Shown: piece after piece, positions 350 to 33,880 of the stretch
Numbering within the stretch: the stretch's first letter is position 1
Layout of the letters: each line of letters starts with the position of its first letter
Assembly: GCA_022508265.1 (NCBI GenBank)
Contig: JAFLVP010000003.1
Coordinates: 1-33,880 of the forward strand
Direction of reading: 5' to 3'
Source of the DNA: Clostridiales bacterium
GTDB lineage: Bacteria; Bacillota; Clostridia; Christensenellales; Borkfalkiaceae
DNA: 33,880 nt
The notes under the pieces: generated by a model
Seen by the model: the letters and a program-made list of their open reading frames with translations, nothing else
Told to the model about the DNA's origin: nothing
Databases searched by the model: none
Made by a program: the position numbers and the translations under genes

Positions 350-640
350 GTTCACAAAATTTGCTTGTTATTCTGTGCAAACACATTTTGCGAATTCGTT
401 TAAGGGTTTTTACCTTAAAAGGCTATTGCTTGCTACTTAGTTCACAAAATTTACTTGCTATTCTGCGCAAGCAAATTTTCGTGATTTGGGAAACTAAGTT
501 TCCCTTGATGCAATTATTAATGGCAAACATTTATAAAATTGCATCAATTCCCTTCCACTCAGGCGAAAGCATTCGCAAATTGAGTGCACGGGCGCAAAAA
601 TGTGATTTTGCTTGTGCCGTAAATTATTGTAAAATATAAC
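350..640 (+). repeat. Mosaic multi-hairpin repeat, copy A (between rpsL and rpsG)
   Basis: This copy fills most of the rpsL-rpsG gap. A degenerate first module starts with GTTCACAAAA at 350. The full series starts with GTTCACAAAA at 440. Hairpin 1 (440-484) has arm AAAATTTACTTGC, loop TATTCTGC (459-466) and arm GCAAGCAAATTTT, ending CGTGATTT. Hairpin 2 (488-504) is GGGAAAC-TAA-GTTTCCC. Hairpin 3 (505-547) pairs TTGATGCAATT with AATTGCATCAA around a loop containing GGCAAACA. Module 4 (556-586) pairs CACTCA with TGAGTG around GCGAA/TTCGC. Module 5 (about 590-621) is a GCAAAA/TTTTGC hairpin ending TGTGCCGTA. The same modules occur in the same order in copies B, C and D. Function is unknown. Confidence 0.85.
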
Positions 641-681
641 TCATTAAAGATTTAAGTTATTAAGTAGTAGCAAATCTTCTC

Positions 682-743
682 CGTTTTAAAACGAATACTG
701 CCTATTTATTGCGGTAAGGGTGATATAAATCCGAATAAATAGG
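682..743. repeat. Palindrome and long hairpin between copy A and rpsL
   Basis: Two inverted repeats sit just downstream of the rpsL stop codon. One is the perfect 12-base palindrome CGTTTTAAAACG (682-693). The other is a 10-bp stem CCTATTTATT (701-710) / AATAAATAGG (734-743) with a 23-base loop. Neither is followed by a clear T-tract on the minus strand, so neither is a standard terminator for rpsL. They could protect or process the rpsL-rpsG transcript, or be a further module of the neighbouring repeat; only one copy is visible here. Confidence 0.5.
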
Positions 744-778
744 AATTTTTACTTGTTGAAAATTACTGCGCCGAAAAA

Positions 779-1153
779 TTATTTCTTGGGTTTCTTTGCG
801 CCGTAACGGGAACGCGCCTGCATTCTCTTGGATACGCCTGCCGTATCGAGTGCGCCGCGCACGATGTGATAACGTACGCCGGGCAGGTCCTTAACTCTTC
901 CGCCTCTTATAAGAACCGAAGAGTGCTCCTGCAAATTGTGGCCTTCGCCGGGGATATAAACGGTACCTTCCTGCTTGTTGGTAAGGCGGACTCTTGCAAT
1001 CTTTCTTATTGCCGAGTTAGGCTTTTTAGGCGTGGTTGTCGTAACCGAAAGGCATACGCCGCGCTTTTGAGGGCAGTTGTCCAGAATGGGCGACTTGCTC
1101 TTGTAAACCTGTTTTTCCCTGCCGTTTCTTATCAGCTGGTTAATTGTAGGCAT
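779..1153 (-). CDS. rpsL: 30S ribosomal protein S12
   Basis: S12 sits at the decoding centre of the small subunit and governs translational accuracy. The 124-residue protein has the family's usual length and contains CPQKRGVC (27-34), [13 protein letters not shown] (39-51), [10 protein letters not shown] and [14 protein letters not shown]. Lys43 and Lys88, whose substitution gives streptomycin resistance in other bacteria, are both wild type, and Asp89, the methylthiolation site in E. coli, is present. The start is fixed by AAGGAGG upstream of the ATG. The gene has its own sigma-A-type promoter (1305-1333) and is not preceded by rpoB/rpoC as in many Firmicutes; recG lies upstream instead. Confidence 0.98.
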
Positions 1154-1304
1154 TTTTTACCTCCTTAATTTACTCGGGTGGCGTTTTATGGCACGCCCTG
1201 TATATATCACCGTCCGCTACCCTTAAAGCGTTCGGAAATAAACTTGATTTTTGCGCTTTTTGACTGAACGCACATAGTCGTCCATATTAAAATACGCAGA
1301 ACCA

Positions 1305-1333
1305 ATTCTACCAAACTTGTCAAGCCTTGTCAA
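1305..1333 (-). promoter_or_regulatory. Promoter of rpsL-rpsG
   Basis: Reading the minus strand, TTGACA (1328-1333), a 17-base spacer and TAGAAT (1305-1310) give a near-consensus sigma-A promoter. The predicted start near 1298 leaves a leader of about 145 bases before rpsL, which is room for an autoregulatory or S7/S12-responsive structure. I could not assign one. Confidence 0.85.
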
Positions 1334-1389
1334 ATGATTTTTTATTATTTGTAAAAATTATAGCCCATTTCATTATAATATAAAATAAA

Positions 1390-1437
1390 GTTCACGAAAA
1401 AAAGCCTGCTTTTCTGCGCAGGCTGTTTTTTGTGAAC
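1390..1437. terminator. Bidirectional intrinsic terminator with TTCAC/GTGAA ends
   Basis: AGCCTGC (1403-1409) pairs with GCAGGCT (1418-1424) around the loop TTTTCTGC. The hairpin has a seven-base A-run on the left and a six-base T-run on the right, so it can end transcripts on either strand. GTTCAC (1390-1395) and GTGAAC (1432-1437) extend the symmetry. On the minus strand it would end the asp23-fakA-recG transcript before the rpsL promoter. Its ends and loop match hairpin 1 of the repeat family, so it looks like a terminator variant of that module. Confidence 0.8.
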
Positions 1438-1632
1438 ATTTTTAAAACGCTTTACGGCGCAAGGAGGGTTTCCCTCCGCCCGCGCACCCGATTTGCGAAC
1501 CCTTTCGGCTTACTGGAAGGGAATTTGCGAGATTTTATTATTGTTTGCCCTTAGTTATCTCGCAAAGGGGAACTTAGTTCCCCCAAATCACGAAAAATTT
1601 AATTTGCAGAATAAAATTAAATTTTTGTGAAC
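1390..1632 (-). repeat. Mosaic multi-hairpin repeat, copy B (downstream of recG)
   Basis: This copy reads on the minus strand and begins directly after the recG stop codon. GTTCAC occupies 1627-1632. Hairpin 1 has a perfect 13-bp stem AAAAATTTAATTT / AAATTAAATTTTT around the loop TATTCTGC, followed by CGTGATTT. Hairpin 2 is GGGGAAC-TAA-GTTCCCC. Hairpin 3 pairs TTTGCGAGAT with ATCTCGCAAA around a loop containing GGGCAAACA. Module 4 keeps CGAAAGGGTTCGCAAAT. Module 5 is GGAGGG-AAA-CCCTCC ending TTGCGCCGTA (to 1453). A final GTTCAC-flanked module is the terminator at 1390-1437. Every stem differs from copy A but stays paired. Confidence 0.85.
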
Positions 1633-3639
1633 TTAATTTAAAACTATATTTTTCAAGCTCTCGTACTTCTGCGAGGCTATGCGGGCAAGCTTGTTTACGT
1701 CGTAGACGCCCGAGAACGCCTCGTCCGAGATATTCTTTGCCGTGAACACCGCGTCCACGGAGAATTTTAAATTTTTAATCTCCGACAACATTCTTCCGCT
1801 CTGGCGGGTGCCCATAAAGTCGCCGCCTCCGCGCATTTTTAAGTCCGCCTCGGCAATTTCGAAACCGTCGGTGCTGTTTTTTATAACACTCAATCTTTCG
1901 CGGGCTTCGGGCGTATCCGAACCCATTAAAAGGAAACAGTAGCTCTTTTTATCCCCTCTGCCCACACGTCCGCGGAGCTGATGGAGCTGTGAAAGCCCGA
2001 ACCTTTCGGCGTTGTAGATAATCATTGTTGTCGCCTCGGGGACGTCCACACCCACCTCGATTACGGTAGTCGAAACGAGGCAGTCGTACTCCCCCTCTTT
2101 GAACGCCGTCATAACCTCGTTCTTCTGCTTGTCCTTCATCTTGCCGTGCAAAAGCGCAAATCTTACGGAGGGCATTTTGGCTTTGAGCTCCTCGTAAATT
2201 TCGGTTACGGACATTACCGTTCCCTCGTCGTCGCCCTCTATCTTGGGGCAGACTATGTAGGTGCGGTTGCCGAGCCCCGCCTGCTCCGCAACGTAATTGT
2301 ACATTGCCGGATACTTGCTTTCGGGAATTATGGAAGTGGAAATTTCCTGCCTTGCCTTGGGCTTGTCCTTTATGGTAGTTATATCGAGGTCGCCGTAGAA
2401 AATTAAAGAGAGCGTTCTCGGAATGGGGGTTGCAGACATTATGAGAGTGTCGCACCCGTCGCCCTTTTGGGTTAAAGACGCCCTCTGCGCCACGCCGAAG
2501 CGGTGCTGTTCGTCGCAGACGGTAAAGGCAAGATTATTGAATATAACGTCGTCCCGGATAACGGCGTGAGTGCCGCAGACTATGTGCGCTTCCCCGCTTG
2601 CGAGCGCCTTTTTAATCTCTCTTTTTTCGGCGGCGGGGGTTGAGCCCGTAAGGGTTTTTACGCAGTATTCGGGGAAGTATTTTTCAATGAGCTTTGCGCT
2701 CTGACGGGCAAGCACCTCGGTGGGGGAAATCATTGCCGCCTGATAACCCGACTTGACCGCCATAAATATGCCCGCAAGCGCAACCGCGGTCTTGCCGCAG
2801 CCGACGTCGCCCTGCAAGAGCATATTCATATTGTGCGGGGAAGTTAAATTGCAGTAAATTGCGTTTACCGCGTCGTTTTGCCCCTGCGTGAAGCTGAAAC
2901 CAAAGCGGGATATAAACTCCGCAACCGCCTTGCGCGTGACGTTGTAGCGGCGGGTGCGCACGTCGTCCCTGTCCCCCTTTATGACCTTGAAAGCCGTGAC
3001 GAGCAGGAAATACTCTTCAACCGCAATTCTGAAAGACGCCTCTTTTATATCGCGGGCGCTTTCGGGACAGTGAATTTTCCGATACGCCGTAGAAAGGGGC
3101 ATGAGCGAATACTTTCTGCACAGCTGTTCCGGAATATTGCTGTAAAAGCTCGTCTTTGCGAGCGCGTCCTTTACGGCAACCCGCACAATTCCCTGCGTCA
3201 AGCTGCCCGACAGCGAATAGACGGGCACGAGCCCCTTTAAGTTGGAGACCTTGTCAGAAGGCTCGAACGAGGGATTGACGAGAGTCGCGCCCATTCCGTA
3301 TCTGTTCTGAACCCTGCCGTAGAAGAGGTATTCCCCTCTCGTCAACTTATTTGCGACATACATCTGATTGAACCAGATTGCCGAAAATATATATCCGCCC
3401 TGCTGACACATCGCCTTGACGAAGGGGCGGCGGGAATAGCGGTTGACTTCAACGTCCAGGACCTCGCACACGGTCAAAATTACGTCGTTGTGATATGCCC
3501 TTTGAACGGGCGTGACGTTGCGCATATCAAGATAGTCGCGCGGATAGTGCTTTGCGACCTCCTCAACCGTGTATATGCCGAGTTTGTTGAAATCTTTCTC
3601 TCTCTTTTCCGATATAAATTTTAATTTACAAAGTTCCAT
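1633..3639 (-). CDS. recG: ATP-dependent DNA helicase RecG
   Basis: RecG is a superfamily 2 helicase that regresses stalled replication forks and branch-migrates Holliday junctions. The 668-residue length is near the family norm. An N-terminal OB-type wedge domain is followed by the helicase motor with GDVGCGKTAVALAG (Walker A, near residue 278), CDEQHRFG (motif II), TATPIPRTL-like motif III (MSATPIPRTL) and QLRGRVGRG (motif VI), then the family-typical MGTRQSG segment near the C terminus. It is last in asp23-fakA-recG. In B. subtilis recG also follows yloU-yloV, with sdaAB/sdaAA between, which are absent here. The ribosome binding site before the ATG is weak, and a short hairpin (3659-3680) precedes it. 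The stop codon directly abuts repeat copy B. Confidence 0.97.
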   Translation of the reverse strand: MELCKLKFISEKREKDFNKLGIYTVEEVAKHYPRDYLDMRNVTPVQRAYHNDVILTVCEVLDVEVNRYSRRPFVKAMCQQGGYIFSAIWFNQMYVANKLTRGEYLFYGRVQNRYGMGATLVNPSFEPSDKVSNLKGLVPVYSLSGSLTQGIVRVAVKDALAKTSFYSNIPEQLCRKYSLMPLSTAYRKIHCPESARDIKEASFRIAVEEYFLLVTAFKVIKGDRDDVRTRRYNVTRKAVAEFISRFGFSFTQGQNDAVNAIYCNLTSPHNMNMLLQGDVGCGKTAVALAGIFMAVKSGYQAAMISPTEVLARQSAKLIEKYFPEYCVKTLTGSTPAAEKREIKKALASGEAHIVCGTHAVIRDDVIFNNLAFTVCDEQHRFGVAQRASLTQKGDGCDTLIMSATPIPRTLSLIFYGDLDITTIKDKPKARQEISTSIIPESKYPAMYNYVAEQAGLGNRTYIVCPKIEGDDEGTVMSVTEIYEELKAKMPSVRFALLHGKMKDKQKNEVMTAFKEGEYDCLVSTTVIEVGVDVPEATTMIIYNAERFGLSQLHQLRGRVGRGDKKSYCFLLMGSDTPEARERLSVIKNSTDGFEIAEADLKMRGGGDFMGTRQSGRMLSEIKNLKFSVDAVFTAKNISDEAFSGVYDVNKLARIASQKYESLKNIVLN

Positions 3640-3658
3640 TTTATCTTTTTATAAATAT

Positions 3659-3680
3659 TGCCGCAAGTACTCTTGCGGCA
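3659..3680. other. Hairpin between fakA and recG
   Basis: TGCCGCAAG (3659-3667) pairs perfectly with CTTGCGGCA (3672-3680) around a four-base loop. On the minus strand it is followed only by a mixed A/T run, so full termination is doubtful. It could partly attenuate recG or mark an mRNA processing site, which would fit recG being needed at lower levels than the genes before it. Confidence 0.6.
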
Positions 3681-3699
3681 TTAGTAAGTTTTTTTGAGT

Positions 3700-5352
3700 T
3701 TATTCCAAAGATACCATATAGTAATACACGGGCTGACCGCCGTAGTGGAAATCTACGTCGCAATCGGGATAGAGCTCGGTAATTTTTGCCGCAAGCTCTT
3801 CCGCCTCCTCTTCCTTGACGCCCTCGCCGTAGTATAAAGTTATCATCTCGTGGTCGTCGTTTTTGAGAGCCTTGACAAGCTTGACGGTCGTCTCCTCGAT
3901 GCTGTCGCTCTTGGCAAGGATACGCTTGTTGTCAAGTCCTATTATGTCGCCCTCTTTGAGCTTGAACCCGTTCATAGTGGTGTTTCTTACGGCGTAAGTT
4001 ACCTGACCGGACGATACGTTGTCGATTGCGTGCGTCATATTGGTCTTATTTTCGGGAACGGACGCTTCGGGGTTGAAGGCAAGCGCCGCCGCAAAGCCCT
4101 GCGGCACGGTTTTTGTGGGAATTACGTGAATAGTGCGGTTGTTGACGAGCGCCTTTGCCTGCTCCGCCGCAAGTATTACGTTGGAGTTGTTGGGGAACAC
4201 GAACACGTTCGAAGCGTTAATCTTCTGAACGGCGTCGGCAATATCCTGCGCGGCGGGGTTCATTGTCTGACCGCCCTCTATAATTCTGTCGCAGAGAAGA
4301 TCCTTGAATATTTCCGCAAGACCGCTGCCCGCACAGATTGCAAGCATACCCATCTCTTTCTTCTCCGCCTCCATCTTGGCTTTTAAGGCGCGGTTTTCTT
4401 CAAGCATGTTTTCTATCTTGATTCTGTCAAGCTCGCCGAGCTCGAGCGCGTAACTCAAAGCAATACCGGGGGTGTTGGTGTGAACGTGAACCTTTACGAG
4501 CTCCAAATCGCCTATACAGATTACGCTGTCGCCTATCTGCATCAGCTTTTCCTTTAATTTGTCGATGTCGGCAAGGGTGGTCATCTGTTTTAAGTTGATG
4601 ACGAAAAATTCGGTGCAGTACGCAAATTCTATCTCGCCCAAATCGAGGTTGATTATGTCCGAGTTGTCGCCGAAAACGTCCTCGTCGGATTTTGTTTCAA
4701 CGGCCTCGGTGGGGATTTCGCCGAGGTCCGCCTCATCGCCCGAGAACGCGGCAAGGAAACCGCGCATTATGGTCATAAGCCCCATGCCGCCCGAGTCCAC
4801 AACCCCCGCCTTTTTCAAAACGGGAAGAAGCTCGGGTGTGCGGGCAAGCGCCTCGTCGCCGACTTCGATAAGCGCTTTTAAAAAGGGTACGAAGTCCTTG
4901 TGCTCGCTCGCAAGACGGGGAGCCGCCTCGCTCATAAGCCTTACAACCGTAAGTATAGTTCCCTCTTTGGGAATTGCAACCGCGCCGTAGGCAACCTTGG
5001 TTCCCGCCTCCAACGCCTTTGCAAATATTTTAGTGGTAAAAGAGTCCTTCGTGTCCTTAATTACGGAACAAATTCCTCTCATTATCTGTGATGAAATTAC
5101 GCCCGAATTTCCTCTTGCGCCCTTTAAAGCGCCCTTTGAAACGCTGTCGCAAATTTCCTGAAAACGGTTCGAAGTACAACCGCCAAGCTCCTTAACCGCC
5201 GATTGCAGCGTGAGCGACATATTTGTGCCCGTATCTCCGTCGGGAACGGGGAATACATTGTATGAGTCGATTTTGGTTCTGTTTATATCAAGCATTCTCG
5301 AGCCCGAGATTATCATCTTGCGGAACTCGGTACTGTTTATTGTTTTCTGCAT
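3700..5352 (-). CDS. fakA: Fatty acid kinase catalytic subunit FakA (DAK2 domain, YloV family)
   Basis: FakA transfers phosphate from ATP to a fatty acid held by a DegV-family FakB protein, giving acyl-phosphate for phospholipid synthesis. The DAK2 kinase domain carries NVFPVPDGDTGTN (32-44) with Asp38 and Asp40 at the metal/nucleotide-binding positions known from S. aureus FakA, and GARGNSGVISSQI follows. The middle domain contains YCTEFF and KVHVHTN, which fit its proposed zinc site, and a DegV-like C-terminal domain completes about 550 residues. I chose the ATG at 5350-5352 because AAGGAG precedes it; an in-frame extension to 5400 has no ribosome binding site. A candidate FakB partner lies at 27863-28708. 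Confidence 0.93.
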   Translation of the reverse strand: MQKTINSTEFRKMIISGSRMLDINRTKIDSYNVFPVPDGDTGTNMSLTLQSAVKELGGCTSNRFQEICDSVSKGALKGARGNSGVISSQIMRGICSVIKDTKDSFTTKIFAKALEAGTKVAYGAVAIPKEGTILTVVRLMSEAAPRLASEHKDFVPFLKALIEVGDEALARTPELLPVLKKAGVVDSGGMGLMTIMRGFLAAFSGDEADLGEIPTEAVETKSDEDVFGDNSDIINLDLGEIEFAYCTEFFVINLKQMTTLADIDKLKEKLMQIGDSVICIGDLELVKVHVHTNTPGIALSYALELGELDRIKIENMLEENRALKAKMEAEKKEMGMLAICAGSGLAEIFKDLLCDRIIEGGQTMNPAAQDIADAVQKINASNVFVFPNNSNVILAAEQAKALVNNRTIHVIPTKTVPQGFAAALAFNPEASVPENKTNMTHAIDNVSSGQVTYAVRNTTMNGFKLKEGDIIGLDNKRILAKSDSIEETTVKLVKALKNDDHEMITLYYGEGVKEEEAEELAAKITELYPDCDVDFHYGGQPVYYYMVSLE

Positions 5353-5416
5353 ATTACTCCTTAATAAGGGTCGACCACCGCGAGGGGTATCTATAAACAA
5401 GCAATAAGGTAAAGTA

Positions 5417-5767
5417 TTACAACTTTACCCCTAAAATATTGACGTTTACGGTGTCAACTATCATGCCCGTAAAGCGTTCAACCTTGTATTTAACGCCTTC
5501 TTTCAATGATTCGGCTACGGCGTTTATGGAAACGCCGTATTTTATAATTACGTTTACGTCTATAAAAATTCTGTCACCCGAAGTTACTACCTTGATTCCG
5601 CGGCCGTCGGGCTGTCTTTTCATAAGCTCGGACAGCGAGTCTTTTAAACGGCGGGAAACGGTGTCAACGATGCCGTAGCATTCGAGCACAGCGTTTTTAG
5701 CCACCTTTGCGATGGCTTGGTCGGAGATTGAAATTTTTCCGTAAACGTTGCTTGTGTTGACCGACAT
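5417..5767 (-). CDS. Asp23/Gls24 family envelope stress protein (YloU-like)
   Basis: A 116-residue Asp23/Gls24 domain protein: GKISISDQAIAKVAKNAVLECYGIV at the start and the alternating hydrophobic strand pattern ending VDTVNVNILGVKL are typical. In S. aureus Asp23 is membrane-associated through a partner and linked to cell-envelope homeostasis; the YloU-type paralogue encoded next to fakA has no settled biochemical role. It is first in the transcript asp23-fakA-recG, with AGGAG before the ATG and a sigma-A-like promoter at 5854-5882. The position between rpmB and fakA is the conserved Firmicutes arrangement. Confidence 0.93.
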   Translation of the reverse strand: MSVNTSNVYGKISISDQAIAKVAKNAVLECYGIVDTVSRRLKDSLSELMKRQPDGRGIKVVTSGDRIFIDVNVIIKYGVSINAVAESLKEGVKYKVERFTGMIVDTVNVNILGVKL

Positions 5768-5853
5768 TTTTACTCCTAATTTGGGAACTTATGCTTTATG
5801 CGAAACTTCAAATTGTGATAAAATCCGAAGCTTCTCGGCTATCCCCAATGGCT

Positions 5854-5882
5854 ATTCTAAACTATTTTATTCGTTTTGGCAA
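5854..5882 (-). promoter_or_regulatory. Promoter of asp23-fakA-recG
   Basis: On the minus strand TTGCCA (5877-5882), a 17-base spacer and TAGAAT (5854-5859). It lies in the 331-base divergent region to rpmB. The leader to asp23 is about 80 bases and holds a small CCGA/TCGG hairpin around AGAAGC. The rest of the divergent region is AT-rich, with no further gene visible. Confidence 0.75.
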
Positions 5883-6007
5883 GTATTTCCTGACGAAATA
5901 TCAAAATTCGACCCTTTAAACCCGCAGAAAATACGCCTTTTGGATAATAATGCTAAAATTATTTTGCAAATTCCGCAAAAAAATAAAACAATAATACGCA
6001 TTTTTAA

Positions 6008-6070
6008 TTGATTTTTTTTAAAAGAAGTGTTATATTTTATAAGGTCGCTTTGATAACGGCCTTATTTTTA
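6008..6070 (+). promoter_or_regulatory. rpmB promoter and leader hairpin
   Basis: TTGATT (6008-6013), a 17-base spacer and TATATT (6031-6036) form a plausible sigma-A promoter. The leader then holds AAGGTC / GGCCTT, a 6-bp hairpin with one G-T pair, followed by ATTTTTAA. That arrangement resembles a weak terminator inside the leader and could be an attenuator or an autoregulatory target; the stem is short, so this part is tentative. Confidence 0.6.
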
Positions 6071-6098
6071 ACGAATTATCCCCACGGAGGTGTATCAT

Positions 6099-6281
6099 AT
6101 GTCAAGAGTTTGCGGCGTATGCGGAAAAGGTCAGACTTCGGGCAACAACGTAAGCCACTCGAAGAGAAGAACAAGAAGAACTTTCAAGGCCAACGTACAG
6201 AAAGTTTCCTATATCGAGAACGGCAAACAGGTCACAGGTTATGTTTGCACGAGATGCCTTAAAACCGTAGAGAGAGCATAA
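6099..6281 (+). CDS. rpmB: 50S ribosomal protein L28
   Basis: A 60-residue L28 of the zinc-ribbon type. Cys5 and Cys8 (VCGVCGKG) pair with Cys50 and Cys53 (YVCTRCLK) to give the CxxC...CxxC metal site; SHSKRRTRRTFKANVQ is the conserved rRNA-binding stretch. The start is the ATG at 6099, correctly spaced after CGGAGG; the upstream in-frame GTG at 6090 overlaps that ribosome binding site and is unlikely. It is the only plus-strand gene in the left half of the window and is divergent from asp23, as in many Firmicutes. Confidence 0.97.
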   Translation: MSRVCGVCGKGQTSGNNVSHSKRRTRRTFKANVQKVSYIENGKQVTGYVCTRCLKTVERA

Positions 6282-6308
6282 ATTTACGGATTTGTTTCAG
6301 TACACAAA

Positions 6309-6331
6309 AACCGCTTCATTTCGAAGCGGTT
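6309..6331. terminator. Bidirectional terminator between rpmB and the LRR lipoprotein gene
   Basis: AACCGCTTC (6309-6317) pairs with GAAGCGGTT (6323-6331) around a five-base loop, with an A-run on the left and a long T-rich run on the right. It serves the convergent rpmB (+) and LRR (-) genes. It is flanked by GTACACAAAAA and, on the right, TTTTGTGAAC (6347-6356), the same ends seen in the mosaic repeats, six bases from the LRR stop codon. Confidence 0.85.
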
Positions 6332-6360
6332 TTTTATTTTTTTAATTTTGTGAACTGCTT

Positions 6361-7440
6361 TTATGCCGTGTAGCCTGTATTGTAAGTTATTGTCAATTTG
6401 TCGTTTTTATCCTCAAACAGAGCGTCGTTATTAAAGGTTGAGCCGCTATAACTATACGAGGGGTTTTCAATTTGAATTTGAGCCCACTCCTCTTCGGTTC
6501 CGGCATAGTTGATAATTTTAAGCGAGGTGCAGTTGTGGAAGGCGTGTCCGTACAGGATACTGCCGCCGCTGAAATACGCCTCCTCTATTTTTGTGACGGA
6601 CGATGGAATATAGACCTCTTCAAGGTTGTCGCAGTAGCCGAATACGCCCGATTTTAATACGGTAATTCCACTGCCGACAACAACTTTTTTGAGCGAACGG
6701 CAGGTATGGAACGCGCCGTAACCCAAGCCGAGCAGAGTTTCCGTTTGAGGTTCCCCTTGCTCATCCGTCACGGAAATTTGCGTGTCGTGCACGCTGTCGG
6801 GTATTATAACCTCCGTCAGAGCGCTGTTGTAAAAGGCAAGATGACCTATACTTTCCAACCCCTCGGGGAAAGTAATTTTGCTCAAAGCATAGCAGTCCTC
6901 GAAAGCGCGTGCTCTTATAATTTTAAGATTTTGGGGGAGATTTACGGTTTCAAGAGTTTTGCACTCTAAAAAAGCGTAGTAGCCGATAGTTTCAACCGTG
7001 TAGGGAAGATTTACTTTCGTCAGACTCGAGTCGTAGCCGAAGATGCCCTGCGGAATTTCCTTAAGGGTGCTTCCCTCTTTAAATTCCACTTCTTCAAGCT
7101 GTGCGCAATTCGCAAACGCCGCAATGCCTATTTTGGTTATCGAGGCGGGAATTATCAGTCTGGTTATGGCACAGCCGCGGAAGCCCTCTTGGGCAATTTC
7201 CTTTACGGGGGCCTCTTTGTCGCCCTCGCCGTAGGTTGCGGGGATTTCAAGCGTGCCTGTAAGCGAGCTGACGTATCCGCCCGCCTTTACCACGTAGTAA
7301 CCCTCCTCGCCGTCATATTGGATATAGTCGTAGTCGATTGTGTAGCTACAGCCGGACGCGGTCAGGCAAATCAAAGCCAAGAATACAAAAATTATTGCCG
7401 CAAATATTGCGGTTATTTTTTTCGTGTGTTTGATTTTCAT
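6361..7440 (-). CDS. BspA-like leucine-rich-repeat lipoprotein
   Basis: A secreted surface protein of about 359 residues. The N terminus is MKIKHTKKITAIFAAII followed by a hydrophobic stretch and the lipobox LTASGC, so it should be cleaved and lipid-anchored outside the membrane. From about residue 50 on there are repeated LRR_5 (BspA/Treponema type) units such as IGYYAFLECKTLETVNLPQNL, each ending in a conserved N/P-L pattern. Such domains usually mediate protein or surface binding; the ligand is unknown. I take the ATG at 7438-7440: it has no ribosome binding site, but a promoter places the transcript start next to it. The upstream in-frame ATG at 7476 would lie inside a terminator stem. 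It is an accessory gene inside a housekeeping neighbourhood. Confidence 0.88.
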   Translation of the reverse strand: MKIKHTKKITAIFAAIIFVFLALICLTASGCSYTIDYDYIQYDGEEGYYVVKAGGYVSSLTGTLEIPATYGEGDKEAPVKEIAQEGFRGCAITRLIIPASITKIGIAAFANCAQLEEVEFKEGSTLKEIPQGIFGYDSSLTKVNLPYTVETIGYYAFLECKTLETVNLPQNLKIIRARAFEDCYALSKITFPEGLESIGHLAFYNSALTEVIIPDSVHDTQISVTDEQGEPQTETLLGLGYGAFHTCRSLKKVVVGSGITVLKSGVFGYCDNLEEVYIPSSVTKIEEAYFSGGSILYGHAFHNCTSLKIINYAGTEEEWAQIQIENPSYSYSGSTFNNDALFEDKNDKLTITYNTGYTA

Positions 7441-7447
7441 ATTATAT

Positions 7448-7476
7448 ATTGTATCATAGCGCAAAACAAAAAGCAA
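7448..7476 (-). promoter_or_regulatory. Promoter of the LRR lipoprotein gene (leaderless transcript predicted)
   Basis: Reading minus, TTGCTT (7471-7476), a 17-base spacer and TACAAT (7448-7453). The expected start is near 7441, and the ATG begins at 7440, so the mRNA would have essentially no leader. The -35 hexamer lies within the terminator stem of the preceding M19 gene. Confidence 0.65.
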
Positions 7477-7496
7477 GCCACTTAAAGCTTGCTTTT
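7469..7496 (-). terminator. Terminator of the M19 dipeptidase gene
   Basis: AAAAGCAAGC (7469-7478) and GCTTGCTTTT (7487-7496) form a 10-bp stem with an eight-base loop. On the minus strand it follows the M19 stop codon and is followed by TTTTTGTTTTG. It overlaps the -35 element of the LRR gene. Confidence 0.75.
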
Positions 7497-7508
7497 AATA
7501 TTATCGAT

Positions 7509-8447
7509 TTAACCGCAGACCTCTTTGAATACGCGTTCAAAGTTGAGGTGCGCGAGCTTTTCCAACGCGGATATTCCTATTCTGCCTTCGAGAAAGGTTA
7601 AAAGCTTTTGAATTTTGGTGCAGTCCTCCAAACCCTCGGGCGCGGGTATTCCGTCAAAATCGCTGCCGAGTGCCACGCTGTCCTCGCCGCCTATATTTAT
7701 AATATGTGAAATATGGCGTGCGACGCTTTCAAAGGTCTCGTCGCCGAGGAAATCCATACAATAATTGACGCCGATAACCCCGCCGCAGTCGGCAAGCTTC
7801 TTTATAAGCCCGTCCGTAAGGTTGCGGCTCACTCTACATACCCTCTCGCAATTTGAGTGGCTTGCAACTACGGGAATCTTTCTGTTATTTAGAATCTCCT
7901 CCGCACCGCCGTCGGACAGGTGCGAGATATCGACTATTATTTTATTTTTATCAAGCTCTTCAACCGCCTGACGCCCCAAGTCGGTAAGCCCCTTTTTACT
8001 TCTTTCAAGAAATTGCGGCACACCGTTTTCAAATTTCAGATTCGGGCTTGCAAGCAGGTTTTCGTTGTTCCATACAAGGGACGCCATTTTAACGCCCGCT
8101 TTTGAAAGACAGGCAATTTTCGAGAGGTCGTCGCCGATAAAAGAGAGGTTCTCAACAGTCAATAGACCCCCTAATATGCCCGAACTAACGCATTTTTTTA
8201 AATTTTGTGAAGAGGTTACGGGCATTAGTTTTTCGGGGTTTTCTTCCAGCTCTTTAAGATAGAAAGAGAGGTATTTTTCAAAGTCTTGCGGGGCAGAAGC
8301 GCCCTCCGTAAAGATTGCAAAGCATTGAGCTGTACAGCCGCTTTTTTTAAGCCTTTCAACGTCCGCCTGCAAATTATTTTCAATAATACCTTGTCCACTG
8401 TCGCAACACGCAGTCAGCGTGTCGCAATGTAAATCTATATAGTTCAT
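7509..8447 (-). CDS. Membrane dipeptidase (peptidase M19 family)
   Basis: A 312-residue zinc-dependent dipeptidase of the renal-dipeptidase family, which cleaves dipeptides including D-amino-acid-containing ones. The metal site pieces are visible: DLHCDT with His7 and Asp9 at the N terminus, LLTVENLSF supplying the bridging Glu region, VASHSNCERV and ISHLSDGG, and ALGSDFDG near the C terminus. No signal peptide is seen, so it should be cytoplasmic. A possible 22-codon upstream reading frame overlaps its start as ATGA, suggesting translational coupling; otherwise only a weakly placed GAGG lies upstream. It lies between repeat copy C and the LRR gene and has its own terminator. Confidence 0.92.
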   Translation of the reverse strand: MNYIDLHCDTLTACCDSGQGIIENNLQADVERLKKSGCTAQCFAIFTEGASAPQDFEKYLSFYLKELEENPEKLMPVTSSQNLKKCVSSGILGGLLTVENLSFIGDDLSKIACLSKAGVKMASLVWNNENLLASPNLKFENGVPQFLERSKKGLTDLGRQAVEELDKNKIIVDISHLSDGGAEEILNNRKIPVVASHSNCERVCRVSRNLTDGLIKKLADCGGVIGVNYCMDFLGDETFESVARHISHIINIGGEDSVALGSDFDGIPAPEGLEDCTKIQKLLTFLEGRIGISALEKLAHLNFERVFKEVCG

Positions 8448-8512
8448 TTGCGAATAAACAACCTCAATATTTTTCTTATCGGCTTCGGCGGTTTAATGCA
8501 GATTATCGTCAT
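8444..8512 (-). CDS. Possible small upstream ORF coupled to the M19 dipeptidase
   Basis: A 22-codon frame begins at the ATG at 8510-8512 after AAGGGGG with a four-base gap, and its TGA overlaps the M19 ATG in an ATGA arrangement. The predicted peptide begins MTIICIKPPKPIRK and has seven basic and no acidic residues. The ribosome binding site and overlap suggest real translation, either as a leader that couples initiation of the dipeptidase or as a small cationic peptide. The sequence is too short to judge by composition and no homologue is recognised. Confidence 0.35.
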   Translation of the reverse strand: MTIICIKPPKPIRKILRLFIRK

Positions 8513-8529
8513 ATTTCCCCCTTATTTTT

Positions 8530-8788
8530 GTTCACAAAAATTAAAAGCTAATTTGCGCTTTTAATTTTTCGTGATTTTTAGAAACTATGTTTCTCTGCCC
8601 GCAATAATTAGGGGCAAACAATTACTCAATTGCGAGCATTCACTTCCAGTGAGCCGTGCGAGCGAAGCGACGCTTTGCACACTTTATTGTAAAAAATTCT
8701 AATATTCTAGTGCAAAAAGCATTCGCAAATTGAGTGAGCGGGCGCAAATGCATGTTTTGCTTGCGCCGTATAGTGTTTAAAAGTTCAC
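8530..8788 (+). repeat. Mosaic multi-hairpin repeat, copy C (between thiN and the M19 gene)
   Basis: This copy occupies almost the whole 346-base gap. GTTCACAAAAATTAAA occurs at both ends (8530 and 8783) in direct orientation; the right one is five bases from the thiN stop. Hairpin 1 has a perfect 13-bp stem AAAAATTAAAAGC / GCTTTTAATTTTT, loop TAATTTGC, then CGTGATTT. Hairpin 2 is AGAAAC-TAT-GTTTCT. Hairpin 3 pairs CGCAAT with ATTGCG around GGGGCAAACAATTA. Module 4 is interrupted by about 65 bases (8656-8720) of a second repeat, then resumes with CATTCGCAAATTGAGTG. Module 5 is GCAAA-TGCATG-TTTTGC ending TTGCGCCGTA (8770). Confidence 0.85.
8656..8720 (+). repeat. Second hairpin repeat (R2) nested in copy C
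   Basis: The segment GCGAGCGAAGCGACGC followed by TTTGCACACTTTATTGTAAA, closed by GTGCAAAA, interrupts module 4 of copy C and is absent from copies A, B and D. Nearly the same sequence, differing at only a few positions over about 37 bases, lies in the variable arm of the FMN riboswitch (27669-27749, minus strand). It folds as a small AGCG/CGCT-type hairpin plus a GCTTTGCAC / GTGCAAAAAGC stem. Confidence 0.8.
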
Positions 8789-8793
8789 AAAAA

Positions 8794-9396
8794 TTAAATA
8801 CTTTCTGTATTTATAAAAACGAGGACGGGCCCGTTAACGTGCAGAAAGGCATTATCATCCGTTACGATATTGGATATCCCCCTGCAATTCCCGTAAGTCA
8901 AGCGTTCGGGATAGGCGTATTTCAGCCCTCTGTAACTTATTATATGCGAGGGGCCGCCGAAAGGTAACACAGAAAAGGTTTTGCCCTTATATTTACCCAA
9001 AAAAATTTCGTCGTCGGCAGGGAAAATTATAGAATTATTTGTGACCATTTCACAAATTACCCCCGATATATGCCCCAAATAAAGCAGTTGAAGGTTGCCG
9101 AGAAAGTGATCCTCTCTCCCACCGCCACCGCCGTATACAGTAACGCTTTCCGCGCCCTCTTCAATCAGCTTTTTCATCGCAATTTCGCCGTCGGTGCAGT
9201 CTTTTTCGGAGGGATATATCTCCTCGGGCGGAGGATTGGGAATTTCGCTTAAACTGTCGAAATCGCCTATGTTTTTATCTATTTTAACCTTGTTTTTGGC
9301 CCAAGAATAGGCGCCGTCACAGCAATACACCACCTTATCTCCGGTATCTATTTCGCCCGCGTACGGTTCGCCGTTTAAAAGCAAAATCGCTTTCAT
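8794..9396 (-). CDS. thiN: Thiamine diphosphokinase
   Basis: ThiN transfers pyrophosphate from ATP to thiamine, giving the active cofactor ThDP. The 200-residue protein shows GDFDS (44-48), the Asp-rich metal site, then KDCTDGEIAM and GGREDHFLGNLQLL, all signature stretches of the family. Length is normal. Its start overlaps the rpe stop as ATGA (9393-9396). It is last in the yicC-to-thiN operon, and its stop codon is followed within five bases by the GTTCACAAAA end of repeat copy C, which may serve as its 3' end. In B. subtilis thiN also follows rpe. Confidence 0.93.
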   Translation of the reverse strand: MKAILLLNGEPYAGEIDTGDKVVYCCDGAYSWAKNKVKIDKNIGDFDSLSEIPNPPPEEIYPSEKDCTDGEIAMKKLIEEGAESVTVYGGGGGREDHFLGNLQLLYLGHISGVICEMVTNNSIIFPADDEIFLGKYKGKTFSVLPFGGPSHIISYRGLKYAYPERLTYGNCRGISNIVTDDNAFLHVNGPVLVFINTESI

Positions 9397-27587: not shown

Positions 27588-27614
27588 AAAATAAGACGAT
27601 TGAAAAATCGACCC

Positions 27615-27800
27615 TTACTCTTTTTTCATCCGGACTATACCGTTGGTACGGGAATTTCACCCGTTCGGGGTCTTTGAAGTTTTGCACGCTATTGTTTGAA
27701 ATCTTTTACAATAAGGTGTGCAAAGCGTTGCTACGCTCGCGCAAAGACCTTCGTGGACTGTAACCACCAGTGGGGAATTGCACCCCGCCCCAAAGAATAA
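27615..27800 (-). ncRNA. FMN riboswitch (RFN element) controlling ribU, with enlarged variable arm
   Basis: The conserved RFN core is clear on the minus strand: GGGGTGCAATTCCCCACTGG, GGTTACAGTCCACGA, then ACGGGTGAAATTCCCGTACC and GGTATAGTCCGGATGAAA. Helix P1 pairs TTATTCTTT (27792-27800) with AAAGAGTAA (27615-27623). Between the two halves the variable arm is expanded to about 81 bases (27669-27749), closed by GGTCTTTG / CAAAGACC and filled with the R2 repeat also found in copy C. Confidence 0.95.
27669..27749 (-). repeat. R2 hairpin repeat inside the FMN riboswitch variable arm
   Basis: Inside the GGTCTTTG / CAAAGACC closing stem lies GCGAGCGTAGCAACGC followed by TTTGCACACCTTATTGTAAA, then AACAATA and GTGCAAAA. 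The left 37 bases match the segment at 8656-8720 with only a few changes. It folds as an AGCGT / ACGCT hairpin plus a long TTTGCAC-TATTGT / ACAATA-GTGCAAA stem. The conserved aptamer core is untouched. Confidence 0.8.
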
Positions 27801-27817
27801 CTTCAAATTGTAATTGT

Positions 27818-27846: not shown

Positions 27847-27862
27847 ATACTTATAGCCGACA

Positions 27863-28708: not shown

Positions 28709-28779
28709 ATTACCTCCAAAAATCGAATTGCCCCCGTAATATATTGGAGTTAACGCGATTTTCTCGAAAAAATTTTACG

Positions 28780-30030: not shown

Positions 30031-30119
30031 ATTATAAACTCCTTTTTCCGCCGTCCGCCCTGACGCAATGTATTCGGCGCGCCATTCGTTGGGGATACCG
30101 ACGGTTGATTTTTTAGTAT

Positions 30120-30148
30120 ATTATATCATAACAATTTAAAGATAACAA
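30120..30148 (-). promoter_or_regulatory. Promoter of glyA-degV
   Basis: TTGTTA (30143-30148), 17 bases, TATAAT (30120-30125) on the minus strand, with a leader of about 85 bases before the glyA ATG. Confidence 0.8.
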
Positions 30149-30220
30149 GGAATTAGCGCAAAAATTTAAACTTTAACACAAATACGGATATTCAACTCCG
30201 TCCGATACATTTATGTAAAA

Positions 30221-30251
30221 AGAGCGCAACCCTCCGTGTGAAGTGCGCCCT
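30221..30251 (-). terminator. Terminator of hslV-hslU-hisS-trxA
   Basis: AGAGCGCA (30221-30228) pairs with TGCGCCCT (30244-30251), one G-T pair; on the minus strand the stem is followed by a short T-run (TCTTTTTAC). Confidence 0.75.
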
Positions 30252-30264
30252 TTAAACTAACCGA

Positions 30265-30579
30265 TTATAAATTTGCCGCAAGGAATTCCTCTGCCTCGTC
30301 CTTGGTCATATAGCCGAGAGATTTTTCCACAAGCTCGCCGCCCTTGAATACACCGACGAGGGGGATTGACATAATTCCGTAGCGTGCTGCAAGCTCCATA
30401 TTCTTGTCGATATCGACCTTTACGAATATCGCCTTGTCCGCATAGCTTTCGGAGACCTCCTCCATAACGGGCGCAAGCATTTTGCATGGTCCGCACCAGG
30501 TTGCAAAGAAATCGCAAACCACGGGCTTGTCCCCCTTTAAAAGTTCGTCAAATTTTTGAATATCAATCTGTTCTACCAT
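30265..30579 (-). CDS. trxA: Thioredoxin
   Basis: A 104-residue thioredoxin with the redox motif WCGPCK (Cys29, Cys32), preceded by VVCDFFAT, and the cis-Pro loop MSIPLVGVFKGG. It reduces protein disulfides in the cytoplasm. It begins one base after the hisS stop codon and is last in its operon. Confidence 0.96.
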   Translation of the reverse strand: MVEQIDIQKFDELLKGDKPVVCDFFATWCGPCKMLAPVMEEVSESYADKAIFVKVDIDKNMELAARYGIMSIPLVGVFKGGELVEKSLGYMTKDEAEEFLAANL

Positions 30580-30580
30580 A

Positions 30581-31837: not shown

Positions 31838-31855
31838 TTTTATATTTTCCTTATA

Positions 31856-33169
31856 TTAAAGAACGTACTTCTTCAAATCGCGGTTTCTTATTATATTTTC
31901 AAGGTGGTCGGTGACATACTTTTCGTTGACCTCTACCTGAATTACGGGGTAATCGTTGCCGCCTGCATTAAAGGAAATATCCTCTAAAAGGCACTCCATT
32001 ACGGTATGCAGACGCCTTGCGCCGATGTCCTCCGAGGTGGAATTTATCTCTTCGGAAATTTCGGCTATTTTTTCTATTGCGTCTGATGTGAAGTGCAAAT
32101 CGATATTGTCCACCGCCAAAAGTGCGGAGTACTGCATAGTGATTGCGTTCTGGGGCTGGGTTAAAATATTGATAAAGTCCTGCTTTGTAAGGCTCTTTAA
32201 TTCGACCTGTATGGGGAATCTGCCCTGCAGTTCGGGAATTAAGTCCTCGACCTTGGAAACGTGGAAAGCGCCCGCCGCAATGAAGAGAATATAGTCGCTC
32301 TTTACGGGTCCGTACTTGGTCATAACCGTGCTTCCCTCGACTATGGGCAGAATATCGCGCTGAACGCCCTCGCGGGAGACGTCGGCACTGTTCTGATTGC
32401 CCTTGCCTGCTATTTTGTCTATTTCGTCGATAAAAATAATTCCGTCGTTCTCGGCGCGGCGAATTGCCTCCGCCGTAACCGCATCGTTGTCGATAAGCTT
32501 ATCCGCCTCCTCGGCAATAATGAGATTTTTTGCCTCTCTTACGGTTATTTTGCGCTTCTTTTTCTTGTGCATACCGAGCCCCGAGAACACCGAGCCCAAA
32601 TCAATTGCCGCACCGCTGCCGGGGGAAAGTTCCAAGGGCTTGGGGACGTCCTCGACTTCGATTTCTATTATCGTTTTATCGTACTTGCCACTGTGAATTT
32701 CTTCAACGAGCTTGTCTTCGAACACGCTTTGAGCAAGCTCGCCGCGCTCGTCCTTTTTCATTTCGGCAAGAACCTTTGCTATCCTTCTTTCGGCGACCGC
32801 GCCCGCCTTGTAGCTGACCTCCGCCGTCTTTTCCTCTTTGACAAGGCGAATTGCACACTCCGCCAAATCGCGCACCATGGACTCGACGTCCCTGCCGACG
32901 TAGCCCACTTCGGTGTACTTTGTTGCCTCGACCTTTATGAACGGAGCTTTGACAAGCTTTGCAAGTCTGCGGGCGATTTCCGTTTTACCTACGCCGGTGG
33001 GACCCTTCATAATGATGTTTTTGGGAGTAATCTCATCCATAAGCTCGGGGGAGAGCTGACTTCTGCGGTAGCGGTTACGAAGCGCGATTGCTACCGCCTT
33101 TTTTGCTTCGTCCTGACCTATGATATATTTATTGAGTTCGTGAACAATCTGTTTGGGAGTCAAATCCAT
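31856..33169 (-). CDS. hslU: ATP-dependent protease ATPase subunit HslU (ClpY)
   Basis: HslU unfolds substrates and feeds them into HslV. The 437-residue AAA+ protein has GPTGVGKT (56-63), the pore motif GYVGRDVE, a charged I-domain (about 110-230), IIFIDEIDKIAGKG (Walker B) and GARRLHTVME (sensor 2). The C-terminal end KKYVL fits the tail that docks into HslV. It begins ten bases after hslV. Confidence 0.97.
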   Translation of the reverse strand: MDLTPKQIVHELNKYIIGQDEAKKAVAIALRNRYRRSQLSPELMDEITPKNIIMKGPTGVGKTEIARRLAKLVKAPFIKVEATKYTEVGYVGRDVESMVRDLAECAIRLVKEEKTAEVSYKAGAVAERRIAKVLAEMKKDERGELAQSVFEDKLVEEIHSGKYDKTIIEIEVEDVPKPLELSPGSGAAIDLGSVFSGLGMHKKKKRKITVREAKNLIIAEEADKLIDNDAVTAEAIRRAENDGIIFIDEIDKIAGKGNQNSADVSREGVQRDILPIVEGSTVMTKYGPVKSDYILFIAAGAFHVSKVEDLIPELQGRFPIQVELKSLTKQDFINILTQPQNAITMQYSALLAVDNIDLHFTSDAIEKIAEISEEINSTSEDIGARRLHTVMECLLEDISFNAGGNDYPVIQVEVNEKYVTDHLENIIRNRDLKKYVL

Positions 33170-33179
33170 TTTCTTCTCC

Positions 33180-33716
33180 TTATATCGTCTCGCATTTTAT
33201 GTTGTCGTTGGTAAACACGCAGATTTCGCTGGCAATTTTGAGGGACTTTTTAGCAATTTCCTCTGCCGTAAAGTCGGTATTCTGAAGAAGCGCCCTCGCC
33301 GCCGCAAGCGCGTAGTTGCCACCGCTGCCGATAGCCGCAATTCCGTCGTCGGGCTCGATAACCTCGCCGGTACCCGAAACAATCAGCATCGTATTTGCGT
33401 CCGCCACAATCATCAGCGCTTCAAGCTTTCTTACCGCCTTGTCCGAGCGCCAGAGCTCGGCAAGCTCCACCGCAGAGCGCATGAGGTTTCCCGAAAATTT
33501 ATTTAGCATTCCCTCGAACTTTTCGCTCAAAGAAAAGGCGTCCGAAACCGAACCGGCAAAGCCCAAAATTACTTTGCCGCCGTAAATTCTTCTAACCTTT
33601 TGCGCACTGTTTTTGAAAATTACGCTCTCGCCCATAGTGACCTGTCCGTCGCCTGCGATAGCCGTTTTGCCTCCGCGCTTTACCGCGCAGATTGTAGTTG
33701 CGTGAAATTCAACCAT
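33180..33716 (-). CDS. hslV: ATP-dependent protease proteolytic subunit HslV (ClpQ)
   Basis: The N-terminal-nucleophile peptidase of the HslUV complex. The 178-residue protein reads [19 protein letters not shown]; the mature N terminus should be Thr7 after a six-residue leader. [30 protein letters not shown] and [13 protein letters not shown] are family signatures. Unlike B. subtilis ClpQ (MSSFHATT), position 2 is Val, not Ser, so the proposed N-terminal-Ser mechanism cannot apply. GAGGAG before the ATG overlaps the end of repeat copy D. Confidence 0.96.
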
Positions 33717-33724
33717 AACTTCTC

Positions 33725-33880
33725 CTCACAAAATAGTTTTCTATTCTGCGAAAACAATTTTCCGTGATTTTAGGGCTTCTCGCCCTCTTCGTGCGTTCTT
33801 AAGGGCACACCGTTATTTAAACGCACGAATTCACCTCGCTCAGGCGAAAGTTTTCGCAAATTGGGTGCGCTAAGCAAAAA
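33725..33880 (+). repeat. Mosaic multi-hairpin repeat, copy D (upstream of hslV, cut by the window edge)
   Basis: CTCACAAAAT starts at 33725, within nine bases of the hslV ATG. Hairpin 1 has arms AAAATAGTTTTC / GAAAACAATTTT around TATTCTGC (33742-33749), ending CGTGATTT. Hairpin 2 is AGGGC-TTCTC-GCCCT. Hairpin 3 has a perfect 10-bp stem TTCGTGCGTT (33788-33797) / AACGCACGAA (33820-33829) around a loop with AAGGGCACACCGTTATTTA. Module 4 is GCTCAGGCGAAAGTTTTCGC followed by AAATTGGGTGCGC. Module 5 is cut off by the end of the window. The promoter of hslVU is therefore beyond the window or inside this element. Confidence 0.85.

What the first reader, a model, noticed from the sequence alone, without database searches (positions are those of the whole stretch)
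350..33880. A dispersed repeat whose stems change but stay paired: five-hairpin mosaic element in four copies
Copies A (350-640), B (1390-1632, reverse orientation), C (8530-8788) and D (33725-33880) share a fixed module order. What is conserved is not the stems but the joints: GTTCACAAAA at the start, the loop TATTCTGC, the junction CGTGATTT, the hairpin-3 loop GGGCAAACA, CGAAAG..TTCGCAAAT and the ending GCCGTA. Hairpin-1 arms: ACTTGC/GCAAGC (A), AATTTAATTT/AAATTAAATT (B), TTAAAAGC/GCTTTTAA (C), GTTTTC/GAAAAC (D). Hairpin-3 stems: TTGATGCAATT, TTTGCGAGAT, CGCAAT and TTCGTGCGTT, each perfectly complemented. Compensated variation in several stems of one genome means structure, as RNA or as single-stranded DNA, is what is kept. 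I know no named bacterial repeat with these motifs. It could be a mobile structured element, a regulatory RNA family, or a transcript-end/processing device.
Basis: seen in the sequence. Interest (0 to 1): 0.88.

Follow-up and report, generated by a model that had tools for sequence, protein, structure and literature searches.

The report
Mobile mosaic repeat of DNA hairpins
A short non-coding DNA repeat, found in dozens of copies in a genus of uncultured gut bacteria, is built from five swappable hairpins whose letters differ freely while the two sides of each stem stay matched, and it appears to jump and exchange parts as DNA rather than to work as an RNA.

Summary
The four window copies belong to a ~184-nt, five-hairpin family: 51 model hits in the window's genome (29 above 100 bits), 34 of 37 genomes of its genus, weak hits in 4 of 5 of a sister genus, none in 142 further genomes drawn from the order. 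Covariation is strong (34 of 49 pairs with double changes) but not of RNA type: in 46 well-defined pairs of 85 copies G-T cells (23) are rarer than A-C (42), against 800 double Watson-Crick changes; FMN riboswitches of the genus, same filter, give 25 and 5 (filter-dependent). Empty sites show mobility. At 15 sites filled in two species, 3 elements were replaced whole, one only in hairpin 1, one only in its right half. Similarity is linked mainly within blocks H2-H3 and H4-H5. The left end abuts a stop codon in 26 of 60 copies. No Y1 transposase or reverse transcriptase is found in the window's genome. Best reading: a non-autonomous, modular mobile DNA-hairpin repeat, a new variant of the BOX/bcr1 kind; the moving enzyme is unknown.

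The parts
350..395 (+). extra hairpin 1 (no core of its own) upstream of copy A; absent at the same place in relative G073
   Evidence: R2 (H1-only) model hit 33.2 bits; alignment with G073
440..622 (+). copy A, full element
   Evidence: R1 hit 203.5 bits, E 1.1e-45; orthologous copy in G073 with one difference inside the element
442..484 (+). copy A hairpin 1 (TCAC..GTGA base, bulged C, variable stem, loop TATTCTGC)
   Evidence: pairs counted; fold
488..504 (+). copy A hairpin 2
505..547 (+). copy A hairpin 3
564..575 (+). copy A hairpin 4 core
586..617 (+). copy A hairpin 5
1390..1437 (-). second hairpin 1 just downstream of copy B (hairpin on both strands)
   Evidence: R2 hits on both strands; terminator-like on both strands
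1452..1632 (-). copy B, full element, starting directly after a TAA stop codon; none of 20 relatives has an element abutting that gene's stop
   Evidence: R1 197.8 bits; stop position; relatives
8530..8771 (+). copy C, full element with insert; absent in G073 (inserted segment about 8528-8807)
   Evidence: R1 156.5 bits; empty site
8657..8715 (+). ~59-nt optional insert in the hairpin-4 region of copy C; also in G000 C41:3716-3958 and in G073 copies (read in C1:164488 and C12:22429); present in one species and absent in the other at two shared sites
   Evidence: 7 of 62 G073 hits are 239-245 nt long
8783..8807 (+). cut-off second hairpin 1 (5' half) downstream of copy C
   Evidence: empty-site limit
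33724..33880 (+). copy D, cut by the window end (an assembly gap follows)
   Evidence: R1 104.7 bits; orthologue in G073 without the gap

Best explanation
It is a non-autonomous mobile DNA repeat of the Coproplasma family of uncultured Clostridia, built as a terminal hairpin (H1) plus a core (H2-H5) and often followed by a second H1 or its 5' half. Its stems are kept as Watson-Crick hairpins at the DNA level; their letters hardly matter. Copies insert mainly between genes, with a fixed left end that tends to abut a stop codon and a ragged right end that often stops in the loop of the second H1. Copies exchange whole hairpins or blocks, so compensated variation is largely produced by swapping complete hairpins, and new stem sequences probably arise by hairpin-templated DNA synthesis. 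Shown: family, range, insertion differences between species, exchange at fixed sites, scarcity of G-T, H1 terminal redundancy, left-end bias. Inferred: that the moving form is folded single-stranded DNA, and that an enzyme acting in trans recognises H1.
For: Copies and range. Covariation. Pairing type: 3722 WC, 23 G-T, 42 A-C, 61 other cells in 46 of 49 pairs of 85 copies, with 800 double WC changes, against 947, 25, 5, 10 and 95 for 30 FMN riboswitches of the genus under the same filter (pairs with at most 30% non-WC cells); sister genus: an H1 stem in 23 of 23 copies, 333 WC, 0 G-T, 5 A-C, 8 other. Mobility: site lacking the core in the other species for at least 2 of 30 G000 copies and at least 5 of 30 G073 copies; the others are filled in both, unresolved or without held DNA. 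Around copy B, 19 of 20 relatives have no element in the stretch past that gene's end, and the 20th (G009) has one ~139 nt past the stop in the opposite direction. Exchange: 15 shared sites, whole replacement 3, H1 only 1, right half only 1; block linkage H2-H3 r 0.47 and H4-H5 r 0.34, H1 with H3, H4, H5 about 0; 4 of 23 sister-genus copies are only 97-101 nt long and lack H2-H3. Terminal redundancy: own H1 is best (ties included) for 7 of 23 right-hand H1-like stretches, mean score 21.5 against a permuted maximum of 18.4; tandem arrays. Left end: 26 of 60 against a mean of 7.4 of 48 (maximum 12) for random intergenic placement and 3-4 of 59-60 for the right end.
Against: No enzyme was found, and few families were searched: PF01797 (Y1) absent from G000, G002, G006, G014, G016; PF00078 (RT) absent from G000, G002, G006, G016 but present in G014; TIGR02249 over cut-off in 0 of 37, though other tyrosine recombinases ring in 35 of 37, G000 included; PF04986 (Y2) silent, as was its control. 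No consistent target duplication: one 40-bp direct repeat (G073 C1:809814), a 5-nt overlap at copy C, none clear elsewhere. 16 of 23 right H1' do not best match their own H1. Solo H1 could be a deletion product. Low block linkage could partly be saturation of fast-changing stems; H1-H2 (r 0.17, 33 of 500 permutations as high) and H2-H4 (r 0.19, 13 of 500) are weakly linked. The G-T result depends on the filter: with all 49 pairs the element has 85 G-T and 52 A-C (62 of the G-T in hairpin 5), FMN 66 and 15; at stricter filters the control shrinks to 13:5 and then 4:4 while the element stays 23:42; with blind RNAalifold structures three 30-copy subsets give 43-57 G-T to 24-28 A-C.
Confidence: 0.6

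Rival explanations
1. Replication template switching alone: the hairpins are quasi-palindromes that replication keeps perfect by copying one arm from the other; the repeat is an old dispersed element with no selection on structure.
For: Template switching can make Watson-Crick compensations in one step, while two-step ones more often involve G-U (PMC8794818, passages read); the pattern here is Watson-Crick with little G-T in well-defined pairs.
Against: Does not by itself give insertion differences between species, whole-element replacement at a fixed site or the fixed left end. Compatible with the best explanation as the source of new stems.
Confidence: 0.22
2. Structured regulatory or small RNA family under selection for RNA pairing.
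For: Strong fold, strong covariation; many copies lie directly after stop codons and would be transcribed. With all pairs counted G-T exceeds A-C (85 to 52).
Against: In well-defined pairs G-T is rarer than A-C, unlike FMN riboswitches under the same filter and 12 tRNAs (9 to 1) of these genomes; mixed orientation; no Rfam match over copies at gathering score and none reaching it in 8 copy loci searched at E<=1; 0 hits in three genomes of the genus (G008, G012, G025).
Confidence: 0.06
3. Transcript-end device: terminator or 3'-end protector that replaces native terminators.
For: Left end abuts stop codons in 26 of 60 and 45 of 114 in a wider set.
Against: The simple terminator scan of window 1-9000 calls none in hairpins 1-5 of A, B or C, only the extra H1 at 1403-1424 and C's insert; the left neighbour gene is divergent in 25 of 60 copies, and some of those left ends abut a reverse Shine-Dalgarno (read by eye, not counted).
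Confidence: 0.08
4. Integron-like cassette system: H1 is an attC-like folded site and cores are cassettes, moved by a tyrosine recombinase.
For: Bulged C in 21 of 21 copies of A2 and 81 of 85 of A3, a central position unpaired in 10 of 21, a loop that can hold a 300-nt extension, H1-core-H1 arrays; compare extrahelical bases, central spacer and variable top of attC (PMC2727003, passages). Tyrosine recombinases of some kind ring in 35 of 37 genomes.
Against: No match over the integron-integrase cut-off in 37 genomes, though no control genome passed it either; GTTCAC does not fit the attC core consensus GTTRRRY (consensus recalled); no coding cassettes seen; the bulge is missing in 9 of 23 sister-genus copies, all 7 with a changed base among them.
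Confidence: 0.05

Closest known systems
BOX elements of Streptococcus pneumoniae (and RUP, SPRITE)
   Same: Short interspersed repeats with stem-loops, many copies, BOX with variable internal modules, judged parasitic and non-autonomous (PMC3049150, passages)
   Different: No sequence comparison made; here H1 is a direct terminal repeat, stems vary freely as Watson-Crick hairpins, blocks swap in place, and left ends abut stop codons
bcr1 and the bcr1-bcr18 repeats of the Bacillus cereus group
   Same: Intergenic repeats of ~150-170 bp (bcr1) with mobile-element traits, often in UTRs (PMC3446304 and PMC2267715, passages; the original bcr1 paper is not held)
   Different: No sequence comparison made; block exchange and pair-type counts are not in the passages I saw
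Integron attC sites and gene cassettes
   Same: Folded single-strand hairpin with extrahelical base, free stem sequence and variable top (PMC2727003, passages); hairpin-separated units
   Different: No integron integrase over cut-off, no coding cassettes seen, no attC consensus (recalled)
REP/RAYT and IS200/IS605-type repeats
   Same: Dispersed extragenic hairpin DNA
   Different: Y1 transposase absent from the window genome and the copy-rich relatives searched
MITEs
   Same: Small, non-coding, folded, non-autonomous
   Different: No terminal inverted repeats (by eye); no consistent target duplication

Membership tests
MITE | terminal inverted repeats | tested here: not met
   By eye on A2 the ends GTTCACAAAA.. 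and ..GCCGTAA are not inverted repeats; the right-hand H1' is a direct repeat
MITE | short target-site duplication | tested here: inconclusive
   Seven sites read: 5-nt overlap at copy C, 40-bp direct repeat at G073 C1:809814, none clear at the others
MITE | a related transposase-bearing element | tested here: inconclusive
   No element split around an ORF seen among the G000 hits; only four enzyme families searched
REP/RAYT or IS200/IS605 | Y1 transposase in the genome | tested here: not met
   0 matches in G000, G002, G006, G014, G016; 10 of 41 genomes have one
Integron | integron integrase | tested here: not met
   TIGR02249 over cut-off in 0 of 37 genomes (best in G000 71 bits, cut-off 265); no control genome passed it either, and weaker tyrosine-recombinase matches occur in 35 of 37
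Integron | attC with R/L boxes and extrahelical bases | tested here: inconclusive
   Bulged C in 21 of 21, central mismatch in 10 of 21, but no GTTRRRY box (consensus recalled)
Structured RNA family (Rfam-type) | match to a curated family | tested here: not met
   No match over copies at gathering score; 4 matches at E<=1 in 8 loci, all well below gathering
Structured RNA family (Rfam-type) | covariation tolerating G-U | tested here: not met
   In 46 of 49 pairs 23 G-T, 42 A-C, 800 double WC; with all 49 pairs 85, 52, 831
Structured RNA family (Rfam-type) | discrete transcript | not testable with these tools
   no expression data
BOX | boxA-boxB-boxC sequence modules | not tested
   No alignment with BOX sequences was made
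bcr1 | bcr1 sequence | not tested
   No bcr1 sequence was compared
Intrinsic terminator | GC-rich stem followed by a T run | tested here: not met
   Hairpins 1-5 of copies A-C not called; the extra H1 at 1403-1424 is called on both strands and C's insert hairpin on the + strand (copy D not scanned)

The most novel reading that the evidence does not exclude
A non-coding analogue of the integron: a cassette system in Clostridia in which a hairpin known only by its shape (H1) serves as the recombination site, units of H1 plus a core of swappable hairpins are excised and inserted as folded single-stranded DNA next to stop codons, and a resident recombinase that is neither IntI, Y1 nor RT drives it. 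The arms are rewritten together at each round, so the family evolves by hairpin shuffling rather than by point mutation.
Probability: 0.2. Interest if true: 0.85.

Novelty: new variant of a known kind. Interest (0 to 1): 0.62.

Why it matters
Compensated stem variation is usually read as proof of a functional RNA. Here a large, clean covariation signal carries a signature (few G-T, whole hairpins swapped between copies at fixed sites) that points to a DNA process. That warns covariation-based RNA discovery, suggests a simple test (the G-T to A-C ratio against an RNA of the same genomes, with attention to ill-defined pairs), and offers a natural family, with dozens of copies in some genomes and 93 genomes of the genus held, in which the origin of perfect hairpins, by exchange or by template switching, can be studied directly.

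Tried and rejected
Y1 transposase and reverse transcriptase as movers: not found in the window's genome; an RT is present in one copy-rich genome, G014. Integron integrase: none over cut-off. Y2: inconclusive because the control was silent. An ORF that seemed to end at H1 in G000 C28 (idea noted) was dropped: it is the edge of another ~300-nt structured repeat inserted in the H1 loop. Rfam: nothing over copies. Viral contigs, plasmids, phages: no match (one search is an exact pattern only). A first orthology alignment of copy C was poor, and a second still did not place the joint; the limits given come from the flank matches. A first count of gaps to neighbour genes took open frames running into the element as gap 0-2; redone with true stops. 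One search picked another frame's stop in several relatives; the statement on copy B rests on the model search. One G000 copy (C19:15355) may also be absent in G073 but was not resolved. Rows dropped before counts: 3 of 49 pairs in the WC/G-T/A-C count (full count also given); identical rows (91 to 85 copies); 1 of 60 copies without enough right flank; 2 of 116 copies without 300 nt of left flank; 12 of 60 copies without a usable random position; 2 of 17 site pairs. The FMN control used the best 30 of 58 genomes with a match.
Full report
WHAT IS THERE. From 21 copies of the window's genome (G000, a 1.55-Mb draft in 43 contigs; the window is contig C23:1-33880) I built an alignment (A2) and a covariance model (R1): 184 positions, 49 pairs, five helices. 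R1 finds 51 places in G000 at E<=1, 29 of them above 100 bits, and 62 in the near relative G073 at E<=0.1. Of 37 genomes of the genus, the window's own included, 34 have a match at E<=1e-4; of 24 genomes from other families of the order, none (with filters that lose weak matches). A wider draw of 151 genomes gave 7 with a match: 3 of the genus (the window's genome among them) and 4 of 5 of a sister genus at weak scores; none in 1 genome of another genus of the family nor in the other 142, of which 18 are listed as other families and 124 are not itemised. Named records with an exact motif are MAGs labelled Clostridia, Clostridiales, Candidatus Coproplasma or uncultured Christensenella (52 stretches). 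No match in plasmids or phages and no exact motif in viral contigs.

STRUCTURE. On A2, 96.4% of cells pair and 34 of 49 pairs have double changes; none of 500 shuffles reaches the covariation score, cells paired or double changes, while 21 of 500 reach the count of further pair types. Sliding partners by 1-3 columns lowers cells paired to 34-52%. In the sister genus the base of hairpin 1 changes on both sides in 7 of 23 copies, and 23 of 23 still have a stem of 12-19 pairs.

NOT RNA-TYPE COVARIATION. In 85 distinct copies, leaving out 3 ill-defined pairs, cells are 3722 Watson-Crick, 23 G-T, 42 A-C, 61 other, with 800 double Watson-Crick changes. RNA pairing should favour G-U over A-C. Thirty FMN riboswitches of the same genus (best 30 of 58 genomes with a match), under the same filter on pairs (at most 30% non-Watson-Crick cells), give 947, 25, 5 and 10, with 95 double changes; 12 tRNAs give 9 G-T to 1 A-C. 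The result depends on the filter. With all 49 pairs the element gives 85 G-T and 52 A-C, FMN 66 and 15; at limits of 20% and 15% FMN shrinks to 13:5 and 4:4 while the element stays 23:42. With blind RNAalifold structures three 30-copy subsets give 43:28, 57:24 and 55:27. Most of the element's G-T cells (62 of 85) lie in hairpin 5. G-T per double change is lower in the element at the settings. In the sister genus hairpin 1 gives 333 Watson-Crick, 0 G-T, 5 A-C, 8 other. I read this as arms that mostly change together without a G-T stage.

MOBILITY. Flanks of 30 G000 and 30 G073 copies were compared with the held stretches of the other genome. Sites lacking the core in the other species: window copy C and G000 C12:128944 in G073; G073 C12:23809, C12:3123 (where G000 keeps half a hairpin 1), C15:39526, C3:18386 and C1:809814 in G000. 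Copy B sits directly after a TAA stop. In stretches past the same gene end of 20 relatives R1 finds no element in 19; G009 has one ~139 nt past the stop in the opposite direction. At G000 C23:41516 and G073 C15:57455 the same gap holds elements in opposite directions.

EXCHANGE. At 15 sites filled in both species (alignments), three elements are replaced whole (H1 identity 0.74-0.78, core 0.68-0.75, flanks 0.83-0.92; the contrast is smallest at C6:18619). One has a new hairpin 1 on nearly the same core (0.74 against 0.94), paired in both species. One keeps hairpin 1 to the loop of hairpin 3 and has a new right half. Two have deletions in G000, one is complicated by a nested insert, and seven are near-identical. 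Distances between copies correlate inside blocks: H2-H3 r 0.47 (0 of 500 permutations as high), H4-H5 r 0.34 (3 of 500). Hairpin 1 with 3, 4 and 5 is about zero; H1-H2 (0.17, 33 of 500) and H2-H4 (0.19, 13 of 500) are weak. Saturation could add to this. In the sister genus 4 of 23 copies are 97-101 nt and lack H2-H3; others have another middle.

ENDS. The left end is fixed at the base of hairpin 1. The right side often carries a second hairpin 1, whole or stopping in the loop. Of 59 copies 23 have such a stretch within 100 nt; 7 of these match best (ties included) the hairpin 1 of their own element; the mean score is 21.5 against 14.2 (maximum 18.4) permuted. Tandem arrays occur. A model of hairpin 1 alone (R2) gives 47 and 60 hits in G000 and G073, those inside full elements included and some on both strands, and none in three genus genomes without R1 hits or in three genomes of other families; some hits have no core (for example window 350-395). 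In G000 and G073 the left end lies within -1..9 nt of a long reading frame's stop in 26 of 60 copies; random placement in the same gaps gives 7.4 of 48 (maximum 12), the right end 3-4 of 59-60. In a wider set it is 45 of 114. Sites filled in both species count twice here. By eye some left ends also abut a reverse Shine-Dalgarno. I cannot tell whether this is targeting or loss of unconstrained DNA after insertion.

MECHANISM. I think copies move and recombine as folded DNA, with hairpin 1 as the recognised end. The folded single-strand step and the enzyme are inference. Y1 transposase is absent in the five copy-rich genomes looked at (G000, G002, G006, G014, G016), reverse transcriptase in four of these five (not G014), and no integron integrase passes the cut-off, although other tyrosine recombinases ring in 35 of 37 genomes; Y2 could not be judged. 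Template switching, reported to make Watson-Crick compensations in one step (PMC8794818, passages read), is the likeliest source of new stems and a rival for the whole pattern.

COMPARISON. It works like BOX elements (PMC3049150, passages) and bcr1 (PMC3446304 and PMC2267715, passages) as a short structured repeat with mobile traits, and hairpin 1 resembles attC sites in its bulged base and free stem (PMC2727003, passages), but it does not meet MITE (no terminal inverted repeats) or integron (no integrase over cut-off) membership. Literature searches listed no paper on this repeat; most subscription papers are not held, so this is no proof of absence.

Noticed in passing
L207:3230-3565 (-) (G000 contig C28); similar pieces in several G073 loci: A second structured repeat of ~300 nt (DNA fold z -5.8) sits inside the loop of a hairpin 1, just after TATTCTGCG; pieces of it recur, often at contig ends.
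   Followed up: partly
window 8657-8715; G000 C41:3716-3958; G073 C1:164488-164731 and C12:22429-22635: Optional ~60-nt insert in the hairpin-4 region, present in one species and absent in the other at two shared sites.
   Followed up: partly
G073 C1:809814-809994: This copy is flanked by a 40-bp direct repeat of host DNA; G000 has about one copy plus a partial one.
   Followed up: no
G000 C12:128944-129128: Copy inserted near the 3' end of a lysine/alanine-rich reading frame (HU-like by eye, not tested); the G073 site lacks it.
   Followed up: partly
window 33724-33880 and G000 C23:33980-34059: Copy D runs into an assembly gap with its right part repeated behind the gap: a likely assembly artefact of the repeat.
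   Followed up: partly
window 27614-27801 (-): FMN riboswitch (RF00050, 101 bits), used as source of the RNA control family.
   Followed up: yes
G009 C16:1852-2035: An element in the opposite direction in the gap that corresponds to copy B's, upstream of an rpsL-like gene (gene name by recall).
   Followed up: no
G155, G209, G175, G223 (sister genus; loci L271-L287): Diverged relatives with a free hairpin-1 base and either no middle or another middle module, some in tandem.
   Followed up: partly
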